6,041 nucleotides of DNA from Chthoniobacterales bacterium (lineage in GTDB: Bacteria; Verrucomicrobiota; Verrucomicrobiae; Chthoniobacterales; UBA10450), in the NCBI GenBank assembly GCA_003244125.1, contig QHBL01000389.1, positions 1 through 6,041 of the forward strand, given 5' to 3'. Numbering within the stretch: the first letter of the stretch is position 1; every line of letters begins with the position of its first letter. The notes under the pieces were generated by a model. The model saw nothing but the letters and a program-made list of their open reading frames with translations. It was not told the DNA's origin and did not search any database. This document shows positions 1 to 6,041 of the stretch, in pieces. Position numbers and translations under genes: made by a program.

Positions 1-1184
1 GGCATCTTCCATTTCGTGATGTTCGAGTCGATGAACATCGACGTGTAAGCGAAACCTTTGCCGTCATACTGCGTGTGCAGCGGGCCGAGCCCGACCGGCA
101 CCTCGCCTTCGACTACTGCTTCGTATTTCAGAATCGGCACACCGCGAAAATCGCCATCGAACGTTTTGTTGTTAATCGCCGCCTGCACCTTCTCGAAATT
201 CAGCACCGTCGTCGACGGCTGCAGTTTCCCGCCCGCGACGATCCATTTCCCGGTCGGATCGACGTCCATGCCGTGCGGCGATTTGCCGATTGGCACGAAA
301 TACATTACGCCGGGCACCTTCGCCGGATCGATGATCGGCACGTTATCCATCATCGTCGCCTGGCCGTTCGCCACCGCCTGCTCAGCCGCATGCCAGTTCA
401 CCACCGCGGCGAAGTCACGATCCTTCTGCGTCGCGTTCACTTCGAGCGTGTCGTGCGCCATCTCGGTGTTGTAGCTCGTCCAGAATGCCCAGCCGCTGCT
501 GGGGCCCTTGCCGGTCGAGCCGAGGTCCCAATCAAAGGGCGGCGTCAGGATTTGCCAGCCCACCTTCATCTCGCCGGTCTGCGGATCGACTTTGATCCCG
601 CTGACCATGCCGTTGAATTCCTTGTCGTAGGCGTTCGGATCAGCCACGCGCCCTTTCGGCAAGGGCGTCGAGAATCGCGTCGCGCACAAAATGTATTCGC
701 TGTTCTCGGTGATGAACGATGAGCCGTGATTGCCGATCGAATTCGGAATCGGCCCGAGGATTTGATGCGTTTTGAAATCGTGCAGATCAATGCGGGCGAT
801 GCGGTTGTTGGCGTTATCGTTCACGAACAGCCAGCGGCCGTCGTACTTGGACTTCGTCTGCGAAAGCGCGGGATGATGGACGTCGCCCCAGGTGAAATCG
901 CCCAGCATCTTACGCGATTCATCATCAAAGCCGTAGCCAGTCGCCGGATAGGGCGCGAACACCGGAATGGTGATGATGTGCCGCATCGACGGAATGCCCG
1001 CGACAAACACCTGGCCGGAATGTCCGCCGGAATAGAACAGGTAGTATTCATCCTTCTCACCCGGCGCGACGTAACTCGCGAGCGCGTTCGCGGTGCGATC
1101 GCCTTTGTTCGTGCTCGTGCTCTGTTTGCCGCAGCCGGTCAGGACGACGGCGAGCACGAGGCTGCATTTGAGAATCTGATTCAT
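1..1184 (-). CDS. nosZ: Nitrous-oxide reductase, clade II type, lipoprotein (C-terminus beyond window edge)
   Basis: This is the periplasmic multicopper enzyme that reduces N2O to N2, the last step of denitrification. Only the first 394 residues are present; the end of the beta-propeller and the C-terminal CuA cupredoxin domain lie off the left edge. Five of the seven CuZ histidines are visible: H103/H104 in WGDVHHPALS, H153 in GNHG, H304 in SPHG and H370 in GLGPLHT. Y238 and E241 (SYNTE) match the calcium-site residues of known NosZ. The N-terminus is a short Sec-type signal with a lipobox, VLTGC (C18), and has no twin-arginine motif; this and DVHHPALS point to clade II. The ATG at 1184 is preceded by GAAGGG about 7 bases upstream. 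It starts 11 bases after the cupredoxin stop, so the two are almost certainly co-transcribed. The remaining nos accessory genes may follow off-window. Family assignment is very secure. Confidence 0.96.
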   Translation of the reverse strand, partial: MNQILKCSLVLAVVLTGCGKQSTSTNKGDRTANALASYVAPGEKDEYYLFYSGGHSGQVFVAGIPSMRHIITIPVFAPYPATGYGFDDESRKMLGDFTWGDVHHPALSQTKSKYDGRWLFVNDNANNRIARIDLHDFKTHQILGPIPNSIGNHGSSFITENSEYILCATRFSTPLPKGRVADPNAYDKEFNGMVSGIKVDPQTGEMKVGWQILTPPFDWDLGSTGKGPSSGWAFWTSYNTEMAHDTLEVNATQKDRDFAAVVNWHAAEQAVANGQATMMDNVPIIDPAKVPGVMYFVPIGKSPHGMDVDPTGKWIVAGGKLQPSTTVLNFEKVQAAINNKTFDGDFRGVPILKYEAVVEGEVPVGLGPLHTQYDGKGFAYTSMFIDSNITKWKM

Positions 1185-2791: not shown

Positions 2792-3577
2792 TTAAAGGAT
2801 GCGCCAGTCGTGCCACACGCCCATCGAGCACAGGCGCACGTAAACATCGGTGAACCCCACCCAGAACAAGCTCATCCAGGCCCAAAGCATGTGGCGACGA
2901 TTAAGGCAGCTGACGCAGCGGTAGCAATTGTATGAAGCCGGCGCGCGTGAAAGCTGGTCGCGAAATCCACCGATGAGATGGCGCAGTGAATGACAACCGA
3001 AGGTGTAACCGCCGAGCAGAATCACATTGATGAGAAGAACGAACGTGCCGATTCCAATGCCGAAGCGCCCGCCGAACCAAAGCGCTTTCCACACGTCGTA
3101 GGAAAGAATGACGATGAAGATGAGCGCGAGATAAAGAAAGTAGCGGTGCACGTTTTGCATGATGAGCGGGAACGAGCGTTCGCCCAGATAAGTCTTGCGC
3201 GGTTCACCCACCGTGCACGCGGGCGGATCAGCCCAGAACGCCTTGTAATACGCGCCCCGATAATAGTAACAGGTCAGCCGAAATCCGCCCGGCGCCCAAA
3301 GGATCAGTAAAGCGGGTGAAAACAGAAGCCAGCGCGGCCACCATGCCGGCTTTGGACCGAACCAGGCATGCGGAGAATTCCCAAAAAGCTCCGGCGAATA
3401 AAACGGCGAGACGTAGTTGCCGAAAAAATAATGACGTCCTTGAAACGCTGCCCACGTGGAATAAACAATGAACGCGCTCAGCCCGAGAAAAACCAGCAGC
3501 GGCTGCGTCCACCAGACGTCCCCACGCATTGTTTCGCCAAACGACCGCTGCGGGAGTGTGCTCGAGACCGATGCCAT
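2792..3577 (-). CDS. Multi-pass membrane protein of unknown function, probably succinate dehydrogenase-associated
   Basis: A 261-residue integral membrane protein with about five hydrophobic spans (roughly 27-45, 83-101, 146-168, 174-193 and 230-249). Noteworthy conserved-looking elements are an aromatic-rich stretch with WAPGGFRLTCYYYRGAYYK (94-112), a polar loop FWADPPAC..GEPRK, a membrane histidine in NVHRYF (H144), GCHSLRH (H196, H200), and a CxxCxxC cluster YNCYRCVSC (C218, C221, C224) before the last span. From memory, proteins like this occur beside succinate dehydrogenase genes of the cytochrome b558 type in several phyla, and here the gene is divergent from sdhC. Paired His and Cys residues would allow haem or metal binding, but no function is established. 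ATG 3577 lacks a clear ribosome-binding site; ATG 3529 is an alternative start. The membrane topology is secure, the role is inferred. Confidence 0.85.
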   Translation of the reverse strand: MASVSSTLPQRSFGETMRGDVWWTQPLLVFLGLSAFIVYSTWAAFQGRHYFFGNYVSPFYSPELFGNSPHAWFGPKPAWWPRWLLFSPALLILWAPGGFRLTCYYYRGAYYKAFWADPPACTVGEPRKTYLGERSFPLIMQNVHRYFLYLALIFIVILSYDVWKALWFGGRFGIGIGTFVLLINVILLGGYTFGCHSLRHLIGGFRDQLSRAPASYNCYRCVSCLNRRHMLWAWMSLFWVGFTDVYVRLCSMGVWHDWRIL

Positions 3578-3662
3578 GGCTCAATAATGACAGCCGCTCG
3601 CGCCACGATGCAACCATGGAGGCGCAGGCGCGACCCTTCCTCTCGCGCGGCCGGGAGGCAGA

Positions 3663-3906
3663 TTATCGATTCGCACATTCTGACTCCGCTGCGAGTGAGC
3701 GGAGCCGCCGCAACGCAGCACCCGCCTCCGCTCCGCGCGCTTCGATCTCGGCCATTATTTGAACCCGGCGTGCGCCTGTCGAAAACGAGGTTCGTTTTCA
3801 CTCCGGCGCCGGCGCTGGAGGAAACGCCGCCGGGCAGGCTGACGAAGCAGTCTTCCTTCCCGCCGAAAGGCGGATTCATCAGCAAGTAGTCGAAGAACTT
3901 CGGGCC
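3663..3906 (-). pseudogene. Remnant of a type I restriction-modification N6-adenine methyltransferase (HsdM), deleted and frameshifted
   Basis: One minus-strand frame reads KFFDYLLMNPPFGGKED (3855-3903), which is motif IV (NPPF) of HsdM-type DNA methyltransferases. It is followed almost directly by SLPGGVSSSAGAGVKTNLVF, a segment that in intact HsdM proteins lies several tens of residues further on. The reading then shifts by one frame near 3757-3763 and continues as MAEIEARGAEAGAALRRLRS to a TAA at 3663-3665. This resembles the charged helical C-terminal end of HsdM. Thus an internal deletion and a frameshift have left the catalytic motif without its AdoMet-binding part. No hsdS or hsdR partner is in the window. 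The product cannot be an active methyltransferase; it looks like debris of an old restriction-modification locus next to sdhC. Homology is from remembered motifs. Confidence 0.72.
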
Positions 3907-4024
3907 CCGCCGAACAGCCTCGTTGCTACCGCCGCGAGGAGTACGGTATCGGCAGGCCAAGTTTGAACGCCGCGAACGTAGATGTTCGCACTTCTCAACC
4001 CGTCCCTTCTGCCGTATCGCCGAT

Positions 4025-4053
4025 TTGAATGGCACGCTTAAACCAGCCATTAT
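4025..4053 (+). promoter_or_regulatory. Possible sigma70-type promoter for sdhC
   Basis: TTGAAT (4025-4030) and CATTAT (4048-4053) are separated by 17 bases and each match the -35/-10 consensus at 4 of 6 positions. Transcription would begin near 4060, at or just before the proposed GTG start, implying a leaderless or nearly leaderless message. This would explain the absence of a ribosome-binding site there. The match is weak. Confidence 0.25.
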
Positions 4054-4060
4054 TAATGCA

Positions 4061-4756
4061 GTGAGCAATGCCGCCGCTTTTTATCACTCGTCCATCGGCA
4101 GAAAAATGATCGTCGCCGTTACTGGCGTGATCCTGATGGTCTTTGTCCTCGGGCATCTGCTGGGGAATTTGCAGATTTTTCTCGGACCCGGTTGGATCAA
4201 TGGCTACGCGCAGCACCTGCGCGATCTCGGTCCCCTGCTCTGGGTCGAGCGCATCGTTCTCCTCATAGCGGTCGCGCTTCACATCTACTTCACCATTTTG
4301 CTCGCGATCGAGAACCGGCGCGCACGTCCGCGGCGTTATGTGGAAAAGGAGCACGTCAAAGCCAGCTTCGCTTCACGTCACATGGTGGTGAGCGGGTTGG
4401 TCGTACTCGCCTTTATCATTTTCCATTTGCTCCATTTCACCGGGCACAAATTCAACGCGCGTTTTCCACTCCTGAAAAGCGACCCGCTCAACCATTACGA
4501 CGTTTATTCGATGATGGTTTACGGGTTTCAGAACCTTTACGTCTCCGCGTTCTACATCATCGGTTTGTTCTTGTTAACGCTGCACCTGACTCACGGCGCA
4601 TCGAGCTTCTTGCAGTCACTTGGACTTAACGACAAAAAGCTCACGCCGCGCCTCGCCTTTGGCGCGCGCATCTTCGCCTGGGCGCTCTTCGTCGGCTACA
4701 CCTCCATCCCTGTCGCCGTATTGCTCGGCCTCGTTAGACCGACGCAGCAATTATGA
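4061..4756 (+). CDS. sdhC: Succinate dehydrogenase cytochrome b558 subunit (membrane anchor)
   Basis: A 231-residue di-haem membrane anchor of succinate:quinone oxidoreductase, passing electrons between the flavoprotein/iron-sulphur subunits and the membrane quinone. It opens with FYHSSIGRKMIVAVTG, typical of the b558 family, and has five spans (about 15-34, 60-82, 106-126, 155-177 and 203-224). Four membrane histidines, H32 (GHLLGNLQIF), H74 (LHIYF), H122 (FHLLHF) and H175 (LHLTHG), fit the bis-His ligation of two b haems. The frame stays open upstream to an ATG at 3923, but that extension overlaps the hsdM remnant flank and is not family-like. GTG 4061 gives the normal N-terminus; TTG 4025 is possible. 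No ribosome-binding site precedes GTG 4061. The stop overlaps ATG 4753 of the inserted IVP reading frame (ATGA). Confidence 0.93.
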   Translation: MSNAAAFYHSSIGRKMIVAVTGVILMVFVLGHLLGNLQIFLGPGWINGYAQHLRDLGPLLWVERIVLLIAVALHIYFTILLAIENRRARPRRYVEKEHVKASFASRHMVVSGLVVLAFIIFHLLHFTGHKFNARFPLLKSDPLNHYDVYSMMVYGFQNLYVSAFYIIGLFLLTLHLTHGASSFLQSLGLNDKKLTPRLAFGARIFAWALFVGYTSIPVAVLLGLVRPTQQL

Positions 4757-5186
4757 ACGACTGGAAATCCGAAATCCGAATGCCGAATACCCAAACAACG
4801 GCCAATCAAAAAACCAGACAGGAGGACGCAATAACAAATGGAGGGAACTCAAAGCCCTATGATCTCGAGGAGCGGACGTTCCAGTTTGCAAGGAGCAGCC
4901 GCACTTTTGCGAAGCAACTGCCGCGAACCATTTCGAATATTGAGGATGTGAAGCAGTTCATTCGCGCCTCCGGCTCGATCGGCGCGAACTATATCGAAGC
5001 CAACGAGGCAAGAAGGATTTCGGGATGAAAATAAGGATCTGCCGGCGAGAAGCGAAGGAAAGCCGCTATTGGCTTCGTCTTATCGACATCCATGGCAAGC
5101 TCGAAGTGGAGCAACTACGCCTACTCGGCGAGGCCGATGAGTTTATGAAAATCTTCGTCGCGATCGTCCGCAAATGCGAACAATGA
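4753..5186 (+). pseudogene. Four-helix-bundle protein of the 23S rRNA intervening-sequence (IVP) family, frameshifted
   Basis: Typical IVP-family sequence starts at YDLEERTFQFARSSRTFAKQ (4858 on) and continues through PRTISNIEDVKQFIRASGSIGANYIEANEA. Near 5005-5012 the frame breaks: the first frame stops at 5026-5028, while the family sequence carries on in the frame of KKDFGMKIRICRREAKESRY..WLRLIDI to a TGA at 5184-5186. The 5' end also looks damaged. A perfect AGGAGG (4820-4825) precedes ATG 4838, but that ATG is one base out of frame with the core, whereas the core frame opens only at ATG 4753, which overlaps the sdhC stop and translates the flanking repeat. An intact family member would be about 115-125 residues. 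The protein's function is unknown; it is known mainly from 23S rRNA insertions. A two-piece product coupled through ATGA (5025-5028) is possible but less likely. Confidence 0.82.
4764..4787 (+). repeat. Left arm of imperfect inverted repeat flanking the IVP cassette
   Basis: This 24-base arm, containing GAAATCCGAAATCCGAATG, is complementary to 5268-5291 at 19 of 24 positions. Weaker similarity runs on inward (ACCCAAACAA here against ACCCGAAACAA in the complement of the right arm). It also carries an internal tandem GAAATCC (4764-4770 and 4771-4777). It begins seven bases after the sdhC stop. Confidence 0.6.
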
Positions 5187-5298
5187 ACGCCGGACAATTC
5201 GACGTCCCGTGGACTCGCGCGCATCTGGTGTTTTCCGCCTTTCGGTTTGTTAATCATTGTTTCGGGTTTCGACATTCAAGTTTCGAATTTCGCCTCCT
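5187..5298. other. Gap between the IVP remnant and sdhA
   Basis: These 112 bases hold no gene. The distal half becomes TTTCG/TTCGA-rich, unlike the neighbouring GC-rich coding sequence, and includes the right inverted-repeat arm. CCTCCT (5293-5298) directly abuts the sdhA start codon, exactly where a ribosome-binding site would be expected; it is the complement of one. Confidence 0.6.
5268..5291 (-). repeat. Right arm of imperfect inverted repeat flanking the IVP cassette
   Basis: The reverse complement, beginning GAAATTCGAAACTTGAATG, aligns without gaps to the left arm at 4764-4787 (five mismatches in 24). The arm ends seven bases before the sdhA ATG, so the element boundary and the translation initiation region of sdhA almost touch. 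In RNA the two arms could pair around the IVP gene. Confidence 0.6.
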
Positions 5299-6041
5299 AT
5301 GATCGGCAACCTCAAATCCAAGGTTCCTCCCGGTCCGCTGGAGCAGAAATGGGCCAATCACAAGAATAACTCACGCCTCGTTAGCCCGAATAACCGGCGC
5401 AAGTTCGAGATCATCGTCGTCGGCAGCGGGCTCGCCGGCGGATCGGCCGCGGCTACGCTGGGCGAACTCGGCTACCGCGTGAAGTGTTTCTGTTACCAGG
5501 ACTCGCCGCGCCGCGCTCACTCCATTGCCGCGCAAGGCGGAATCAACGCCGCGAAAAATTACCAGAATGATGGCGATAGCGTCTTTCGCTTGTTTTACGA
5601 CACCATCAAAGGCGGCGATTTCCGTTCACGCGAACCCAACGTTTACCGCCTGGCTGAAGTCAGCGTTAACATCATCGACCAGTGCGTCGCGCAAGGCGTC
5701 CCTTTCGCACGCGAATACAGCGGCTACCTCGCGAATCGCTCCTTCGGCGGCGCGCAAGTCTCGCGCACCTTTTACGCCCGCGGGCAGACCGGCCAGCAGC
5801 TCCTGCTCGGTTGCTACCAGGCGCTCTGTCGCCAGGTCGCCGCCGGCACGGTGCAGATGTTTCCACAAACTGAGATGCTCGATCTCGTGCTCGTCGACGG
5901 CCACACCAAAGGCATTATCACACGCGATCTCAAGAGCGGCGCGATTCAGGCGTTCGCGGGTGATGCCGTCGTGCTTGCCACCGGCGGCTACGGCAACGTT
6001 TTTTTCCTATCGACCAACGCGCGCGGCTGCAACGTCACCGC
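5299..6041 (+). CDS. sdhA: Succinate dehydrogenase/fumarate reductase flavoprotein subunit (C-terminus beyond window edge)
   Basis: This is the catalytic flavoprotein that interconverts succinate and fumarate on the cytoplasmic side of the complex. The first 247 residues are present and the gene runs off the right edge. After an N-terminal extension ([13 protein letters not shown], residues 10-22) comes the FAD-binding dinucleotide motif VVGSGLAGG (G42, G44, G47), then [15 protein letters not shown] with H74, the expected site of covalent FAD attachment. [54 protein letters not shown] and [12 protein letters not shown] are all characteristic of the b558-linked SdhA family. ATG 5299 gives the expected N-terminus, but the bases before it (CCTCCT) are not a ribosome-binding site. 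It pairs functionally with sdhC upstream; sdhB should follow off-window. Direction of the reaction in vivo cannot be read from the sequence. Confidence 0.97.

What the first reader, a model, noticed from the sequence alone, without database searches (positions are those of the whole stretch)
4753..5298. IVP-type cassette with inverted-repeat ends inserted between sdhC and sdhA
Seen: a four-helix-bundle IVP-family gene sits between two operon genes and is bounded by a 24-base inverted repeat (19/24) starting seven bases after the sdhC stop and ending seven bases before the sdhA ATG. Known: this family was first described in 23S rRNA intervening sequences, which are insertions whose ends pair and are excised from the transcript by RNase III. 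Inference: this could be the same kind of element placed in an mRNA. The paired arms would form a long stem in the sdh message that might be processed, separating sdhC from sdhAB and changing their stoichiometry. The tight fit to both gene boundaries and the damaged gene suggest an element that spread by an unknown route and is now decaying.
Basis: partly seen in the sequence, partly recalled or inferred. Interest (0 to 1): 0.8.

Follow-up and report, generated by a model that had tools for sequence, protein, structure and literature searches.

The report
Small mobile cassette with heptamer-repeat arms
A roughly 550-base cassette has inserted between two respiratory genes; it belongs to a widespread, apparently mobile family of one-gene elements whose ends are mirror-image arrays of a seven-letter word that differs from element to element but is shared by both ends and tracks the encoded protein.

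Summary
Between sdhC and sdhA lies a broken four-helix-bundle (IVP) gene between inverted arms of 35 nt, each of five tandem heptamers (GAAATCC-type). The two best sdhA relatives have an empty site (sdhC stop overlapping sdhA start): 546 bp was inserted, with TATGA on both sides. Of 147 scored IVP loci from several phyla, 113 reach the 99th percentile of mismatched arm pairs (pseudo-gene control: 4 of 283). The best period is 7 in 84 of 111. Words differ between cassettes, match within a cassette, and track IVP similarity at unrelated sites (Mantel r 0.29, null maximum 0.06), even across phyla. One Algoriphagus junction is empty, occupied by two cassette types, or holds remnants. A Chthoniobacter-genus genome has 2 IVP genes but 20 gene-less hairpins on one 363-kb contig. 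Processing of sdh mRNA is untested, and same-site cassettes show no compensatory arm evolution. Best reading: a mobile cassette, no transposase recognised, whose protein probably recognises its own repeats. How it moves is unknown.

The parts
3923..4756 (+). sdhC ORF (b558-type cytochrome subunit; the true start lies further in), TGA stop 4754-4756
   Evidence: TIGR02046 1.8e-58
4752..4756 (+). TATGA, left copy of the 5-bp duplicated target (contains the sdhC stop)
   Evidence: empty sites TTATGATCGG in L001 and TTATGATTGG in L002
4764..4798 (+). left arm: GAAATCC GAAATCC GAATGCC GAATACC CAAACAA
4753..5028 (+). IVP (four-helix-bundle) ORF, N-terminal piece; first in-frame ATG lies in the duplicated target, the next (4780) inside the left arm; domain match at residues 40-87
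   Evidence: TIGR02436 6.6e-6; ORF
5025..5186 (+). IVP, C-terminal piece in another frame
   Evidence: TIGR02436 6.6e-5, just under cut-off
5257..5291 (-). right arm, read inward: GAAATTC GAAACTT GAATGTC GAAACCC GAAACAA
5298..5302 (+). TATGA, right copy of the duplicated target (contains the sdhA ATG)
4757..5302 (+). inserted cassette, net 546 bp
   Evidence: comparison with L001 and L002
5299..6041 (+). sdhA (cut by the window end)
   Evidence: NF005749 4.4e-137

Best explanation
The feature is one copy of a widespread small mobile cassette: an IVP gene between inverted arms of tandem heptamers. Shown: it was inserted into an ATGA stop/start overlap; IVP genes in several phyla have such arms; the word differs between cassettes, is shared by the two arms of one cassette, and follows the IVP protein's similarity at unrelated sites; sites occur empty, occupied, apparently re-occupied and as remnants; gene-less hairpins of the same word exist in the genome of a gene-bearing cassette. 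Inferred: the IVP protein (relative of the Avd protein of diversity-generating retroelements, no catalytic domain recognised) binds its own repeats and helps the cassette and its gene-less derivatives move with borrowed host or partner enzymes; both arms are made from one template at each move, then drift independently; the gene is expressed by read-through, hence its orientation with its neighbours. In the window the copy is dying.
For: Empty site and 5-bp duplication. Of 147 scored IVP loci 113 reach the 99th percentile of mismatched arm pairs and 132 the 95th; pseudo-gene control 4 of 283 against 113 of 147 at score 28. Best period 7 in 84, 8 in 17, 6 in 6, other in 4 of 111. Arm similarity rises with IVP identity at unrelated flanks from a mean of 13.0 to 30.1, only in the same orientation; Mantel r 0.292, maximum of 1000 permutations 0.059. 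Cross-phylum pairs L082/L141, L161/L221, L145/L175. One junction in 30 Algoriphagus-genus loci: 15 empty, 13 with cassettes of two types, 2 remnants. Another junction: cassette in G006 and G088, none in G007, gene-less hairpins in G086. G086 contig: 20 gene-less inverted pairs, no IVP gene, 2 IVP genes in the whole genome; two of the hairpins share the word of cassette L285. With codirectional neighbours IVP is co-oriented 58 to 1 (56 to 2 with a rougher ORF caller).
Against: No transposase or other enzyme was recognised in the window's cassette, and no movement has been observed. Target duplications are not general: mean longest shared flank word 5.15 against 4.95 nt; 9 nt or more in 4 of 97 (one of them heptamer sequence) against about 0.4% of 1500. 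At the G006/G007 junction the two sites differ by more than a clean insertion. In the spirochaete set only 6 of 21 pass the 99th percentile, and the 23S copy L312 itself only the 95th. The loci are not independent: some are orthologues. The evidence that arms are re-matched at each move is confounded by divergence: at 0.79-0.90 IVP identity there are only four unrelated-site pairs and they are mixed. TATGA could partly reflect selection to keep both stop and start. Of 44 heptamer or octamer arrays on the G086 contig, 10 have no inverted partner.
Confidence: 0.72

Rival explanations
1. One reading: an intervening sequence in an mRNA. The paired arms form a stem that RNase III cuts, separating sdhC from sdhAB.
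For: The arms pair in the predicted fold. A 23S rRNA IVS has heptamer arms, and IVSs are excised by RNase III (passages of PMC4990558). Co-orientation with the neighbours, 58 to 1, fits something that acts in the transcript.
Against: Whole-segment fold z 0.03. In cassettes sharing one site, own-arm pairing is no better than pairing with another genome's arm (type a 38.0 and 38.0, type b 30.8 and 29.5; four orthologous pairs own about equal to cross).
Confidence: 0.25
2. The arms are operator arrays: IVP is an autoregulator that binds its own heptamers and controls its own and neighbouring genes; co-diversification reflects autoregulation, and spread is by ordinary horizontal transfer.
For: Arms track the protein. 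Paired heptamer sites in Geobacter metallireducens were called putative global-regulator sites (passages of PMC2700814).
Against: Does not explain insertion at single junctions with empty relatives, two cassette types at one junction, gene-less copies far outnumbering genes in G086, or an insertion in 23S rRNA.
Confidence: 0.2
3. The heptamers are ordinary simple-sequence repeats grown by polymerase slippage, and IVP genes are passengers.
For: Heptameric repeats are over-represented in intergenic regions of some bacteria (passages of PMC4692102). Orthologous cassettes L088 and L095 differ by one heptamer.
Against: Slippage does not give two inverted arrays with the same word, nor a word tied to the enclosed protein across phyla.
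Confidence: 0.05

Closest known systems
23S rRNA intervening sequences (IVS) with an S23/IVP ORF (for example Coxiella, PMC4990558, passages)
   Same: same protein family, about 0.4-0.55 kb, terminal inverted repeats that pair, patchy distribution; in L312 the arms of a 23S copy are heptamers too
   Different: inserted between protein genes; arms shown to be element-specific tandem heptamers; up to 18 IVP genes per genome (G014); gene-less relatives
Heptamer repeats: cyanobacterial STRR (name from search listing and recall), TAACTGA of Beggiatoaceae (PMC4679880), GGGAATC of Xanthomonas with 70 and 75 convergent pairs (PMC4692102), paired heptamer sites of Geobacter metallireducens (PMC2700814)
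   Same: intergenic tandem 7-mers, often close to genes; convergent pairs in Xanthomonas and Geobacter
   Different: described as repeats or binding sites; in the passages read no link to an enclosed IVP gene is made
MITEs and REP/REPIN palindromes with RAYT transposases (recalled)
   Same: gene-less hairpins that outnumber a gene-bearing relative with the same ends
   Different: no transposase recognised; ends are heptamer arrays whose sequence differs by family
Avd protein of diversity-generating retroelements
   Same: related four-helix bundle (PMC10053308 passages; the IVP of L285 hits Pfam bAvd at 25.2 bits, below its cut-off of 40)
   Different: no reverse transcriptase in the window's cassette, which holds only the IVP pieces

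Membership tests
IVP / TIGR02436 four-helix-bundle protein | match over the curated cut-off | tested here: met
   TIGR02436 26.3 bits (cut-off 24) for the N-terminal piece; C-terminal piece 23.1, just below; Pfam PF05635 below its cut-off for both pieces
23S rRNA intervening sequence | lies in 23S rRNA | tested here: not met
   lies between sdhC and sdhA; no Rfam family in the window at gathering threshold
23S rRNA intervening sequence | complementary ends around an IVP ORF | tested here: met
23S rRNA intervening sequence | excised from the transcript by RNase III | not testable with these tools
   needs RNA end mapping
heptamer-armed IVP cassette (class proposed here) | inverted arms of 6-8-nt tandem units shared within the cassette | tested here: met
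heptamer-armed IVP cassette (class proposed here) | arms resemble those of cassettes with related IVP at other sites | tested here: met
   L098 and L205 at 64% IVP identity, arm scores 35 and 38
heptamer-armed IVP cassette (class proposed here) | empty site in relatives | tested here: met
   L001, L002
DNA transposon / insertion sequence | encodes a transposase | tested here: not met
   between the arms the ORF list shows the IVP pieces and unmatched overlapping frames
DNA transposon / insertion sequence | target-site duplication | tested here: inconclusive
   5 bp in the window; no general signal in 97 cassettes
diversity-generating retroelement | reverse transcriptase with template and variable repeats | tested here: not met
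   no such ORF in the window's cassette; not sought in the other cassettes or genome-wide

The most novel reading that the evidence does not exclude
IVP cassettes are a new class of minimal mobile element without a transposase of their own. Their two heptamer arms are re-made from one template at each move, the small protein reads its own heptamer word (a protein-repeat recognition code diversified across phyla), gene-less heptamer hairpins are their non-autonomous satellites, rRNA intervening sequences are just the copies that landed in 23S genes, and cassettes carrying a PD-(D/E)XK nuclease gene (GxxExxY) between iterated inverted arms form a sister class.
Probability: 0.45. Interest if true: 0.92.

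Novelty: new variant of a known kind. Interest (0 to 1): 0.82.

Why it matters
It joins three puzzles that were studied apart: what rRNA intervening sequences are and how they spread, why some bacterial intergenic regions are rich in heptamer repeats, and what the common orphan four-helix-bundle genes do. It makes each directly testable: it predicts that a given IVP binds its own heptamer, and that gene-less heptamer hairpins share ends with a gene-bearing cassette. It also suggests a way for a tiny element to keep both ends matched while its end sequence changes quickly.

Tried and rejected
Tried with little result: target duplications across cassettes (weak); compensatory evolution of arms at one site (none seen); Rfam families in the window (none); more 23S copies in the family of G131 (its four new loci L320-L323 were not scored for arms) and a motif scan of held loci (only L312 showed several 23S motifs, L302 one short one). 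dN/dS of the Algoriphagus IVP genes: synonymous sites saturated; medians 0.066 and 0.146 rest on 5 of 21 and 4 of 15 pairs, so only a hint of protein constraint; 4 of 13 ORFs there are shorter than the rest (L237, L240, L242, L246). Chance and plain slippage were rejected. Literature: ten searches of the open-licence PMC library listed no paper that by title, abstract start or passages read links IVP genes to heptamer arms; subscription papers and preprints were not searched, and papers were seen as listings or passages, none in full.

Corrections on the way: read minus-strand loci of the genome search unflipped. The arm test does not depend on orientation, but the protein comparisons were wrong for those loci, and two loci (L122, L133) were misplaced. 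One search repeats the full set corrected and is the one to use; the 30-locus figures were not repeated separately. One search stopped with an error and was rerun. Dropped rows: of 150 loci (149 and the window) 3 with short flanks were not scored; of 24 spirochaete places 3 were not scored; of 30 GxxExxY loci 1 was not scored; of 39 Algoriphagus-genus matches 30 were fetched and read. Lists were capped and not every listed match was fetched.

Full report
What is in the window. The inverted repeat is real: 4764-4798 against 5257-5291, 35 nt, 77% complementary, score 34 against 0 of 5000 dinucleotide shuffles. Read inward the arms are GAAATCC GAAATCC GAATGCC GAATACC CAAACAA and GAAATTC GAAACTT GAATGTC GAAACCC GAAACAA: five heptamers each, in register (lag-7 self-identity 0.68, 0 of 2000 shuffles). 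Between them lies an IVP gene in two frames (TIGR02436 6.6e-6 and 6.6e-5). Its own genome is not held; the two best sdhA matches kept are Verrucomicrobia MAGs, L001 and L002, at 88% and 86% amino-acid identity.

Empty site. In L001 and L002 sdhC and sdhA overlap: CAATTATGATCGG and CAATTATGATTGG. The window has CAATTATGA, the cassette, then TCCTATGATCGG: 546 bp were added and TATGA is present on both sides. By eye, L008 has a different IVP-like gene with its own arms at the same junction (probably the sub-cut-off match G005:C19, 7.4e-6), and L003 and L005 have short arm-like spacers without a gene. These three were not scored.

The arms are a general property of IVP genes. I held 149 IVP loci found by the Pfam model in genomes reached from loci labelled Verrucomicrobia, Bacteroidota, Desulfobacteraceae, Desulfosarcina, Deltaproteobacteria and Chloroflexaceae, plus the window; 147 of the 150 had enough flank. 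The best complementarity between the 300 nt before and after the IVP domain was compared with that of mismatched pairs (42,924 scores). 113 of 147 reach the 99th percentile and 132 the 95th. The loci are mostly best matches and include some orthologues. Pseudo-genes of the same length elsewhere in the same loci reach that score in 4 of 283. The 30 loci outside Verrucomicrobia alone give 23 and 28 of 30. Nine further loci of the G006 genus, scored without a control, give 35-57 in seven and 19-21 in two. A spirochaete set is weaker: 6 and 10 of 21. IVP genes are not everywhere: 41 of 59 genomes of that phylum, 7 of 16 mixed genomes and 17 of 90 of the spirochaete set had matches at the thresholds used. 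In the first 43 arm pairs self-identity is 0.47-0.49 at lag 7 and 0.44-0.46 at lag 14, against 0.26 in controls; among 111 cassettes with arms the best period is 7 in 84, 8 in 17, 6 in 6, others in 4.

The word belongs to the cassette and to the protein. For pairs of IVP genes with unrelated flanks, arm similarity rises with protein identity: mean 13.0 below 25% identity, 22.4 at 55-65% (88 pairs), 30.1 above 65% (19 pairs); the opposite orientation stays at 11-12; Mantel r 0.292, largest of 1000 permutations 0.059. The link is not perfect: even above 65% identity only 53% of pairs score 30 or more. Examples across phyla: L082 (genome of a locus labelled Limisphaerales) and L141 (labelled Chloroflexaceae) share GAGTGAC; L161 (labelled Desulfosarcina) and L221 share GAATATY; the window shares its word with L098 and L205, the latter in the genome of L002, whose sdh site is empty. 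Labels are those of public MAG records.

Arms match within a cassette and drift at a site. For 50 unrelated-site pairs with at least 60% IVP identity, a cassette's own arms score 44.3 against each other, but only 22.3 (left-right) and 22.9 (same side) against the related cassette. For four same-site pairs at 0.81-0.93 identity, own arms score no better than left-right across genomes, and same-side arms score higher. Two further same-site pairs (L172 with L120 and L185, 63-65% identity) look like replacement by a different cassette. This suggests both arms are renewed together when the element moves and are not kept paired afterwards. Divergence confounds it; at matched identity only four unrelated-site pairs exist and they are mixed.

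Gain, loss and re-use of a site. A junction that I read as trpE-trpG (recalled from the protein start) was found in 39 of 40 genomes of the Algoriphagus genus; I read 30. Fifteen are empty, seven hold an ATTGGAAG-type cassette, six hold another type, and two hold remnants (L238 a lone right arm; L239 a left arm with an IVP stub). L241 and L244 seem, by eye, to carry a right arm of the first type outside a cassette of the second. At a MoxR-type junction (recalled) in the genus of G006, G006 has a 552-nt cassette with arms identical over 43 nt, G007 has a 16-nt spacer and no cassette, G088 a related copy, and G086 nested gene-less inverted repeats. The fifth genome, G087, gave no match.

Gene-less relatives. 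On one 363-kb contig of G086, lag-7 arrays number 40 against 4 (lag 8), 1 (lag 5), 1 (lag 10) and 0 (lag 11), with no IVP gene at E 1e-3; 10 of the 44 lag-7 and lag-8 arrays have no inverted partner. Of 21 inverted pairs inspected, 20 have loops of at most 86 nt and so no gene. The whole 7.8-Mb genome has 2 IVP genes. One, L285, shares heptamer order with two gene-less hairpins; for one of them the shared stretch runs into the outer end.

Orientation. Where both neighbours could be called and point the same way, IVP points with them in 58 and against them in 1; 50 of 77 left arms begin between 10 nt before and 14 nt after the stop codon of a codirectional upstream gene. A rougher ORF caller gave 56 and 2. 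ORFs and arm ends are approximate. Either insertion is directed, or only readable copies persist.

The rRNA link. L312, from the phylum of the Leptospiraceae MAG L013, lies in a 23S rRNA gene (Rfam LSU, 1707.6 bits). Its IVP gene has stops and frame changes, and its arms GTTCAGAGGACAGATGACAGAAGACTGA and GTTCAGAGGGACGAAGACTGATGACTGA are heptamers (lag 7 0.68, 0 of 2000; pairing 2 of 2000). Against mismatched pairs its arms reach only the 95th percentile (27; 95th 25, 99th 30). The same gene has a gene-less inverted insertion with a similar word further upstream (model position 583). I place the IVP insertion at helix 45 by recalled comparison with E. coli. This is one genome; a motif scan of held loci found no other clear case.

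Mechanism. Shown: insertion, shared arms, gene-arm linkage, gain and loss. Inferred: IVP recognises its word; movement uses enzymes from elsewhere; arms are copied from one template. IVP resembles Avd, which is needed for retrohoming in diversity-generating retroelements (passages of PMC10053308). A solved relative is 2rld (1.9e-6). RNase III processing remains possible but has no support here beyond pairing and the rRNA analogy.

A possible sister class. The 21st pair on the G086 contig encloses a GxxExxY gene (TIGR04256, 2.3e-37), a family of the PDDEXK_3 type. In the 59 Verrucomicrobia-phylum genomes, 25 have matches; of 30 loci fetched 29 were scored: 21 pass the 99th percentile and 26 the 95th. 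The arms look like iterated motifs of about 9-10 nt, with only a weak lag-9 signal of 0.33.

Noticed in passing
L283 (G086:C57 350106-350659) and loci L324-L353: GxxExxY (PDDEXK_3-type) genes also sit between inverted, loosely iterated arms (CGCAGAGR-, CACAGAT-, GCGAAT-like): 21 of 29 scored loci at or above the 99th percentile of mismatched pairs. Possibly a nuclease-bearing sister class.
   Followed up: partly
L312, bases about 481-740 of the reverse complement: A gene-less inverted insertion with lag-7 repetition in the same 23S rRNA gene (Rfam model position 583), with a word similar to that of the IVP-bearing insertion.
   Followed up: partly
L261, L140: Extra arm arrays beside the IVP gene, seen by eye (two left arms in L261; a gene-less hairpin just upstream of the gene in L140), as if cassettes landed in or next to each other.
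   Followed up: no
L087, L096, L109, L204, L206: Six-base units, pyrimidine-rich reading inward; L087/L096, L096/L206 and L204/L206 share 64-66% IVP identity, so unit length may be a clade property.
   Followed up: no
L172 against L120 and L185: Same flanking genes but IVP only 63-65% identical and unrelated arms: one cassette may have replaced another at the same site.
   Followed up: partly
window 3-1184 minus: ORF without Pfam match that resembles a Sec/lipoprotein-type nitrous-oxide reductase (recalled), next to a plastocyanin-like and an SCO1/CusF-like gene.
   Followed up: no
window 3478-4068 minus: An open frame containing FDYLLMNPPFGGKEDC looks like a remnant of a DNA methylase (recalled motif).
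   Followed up: no
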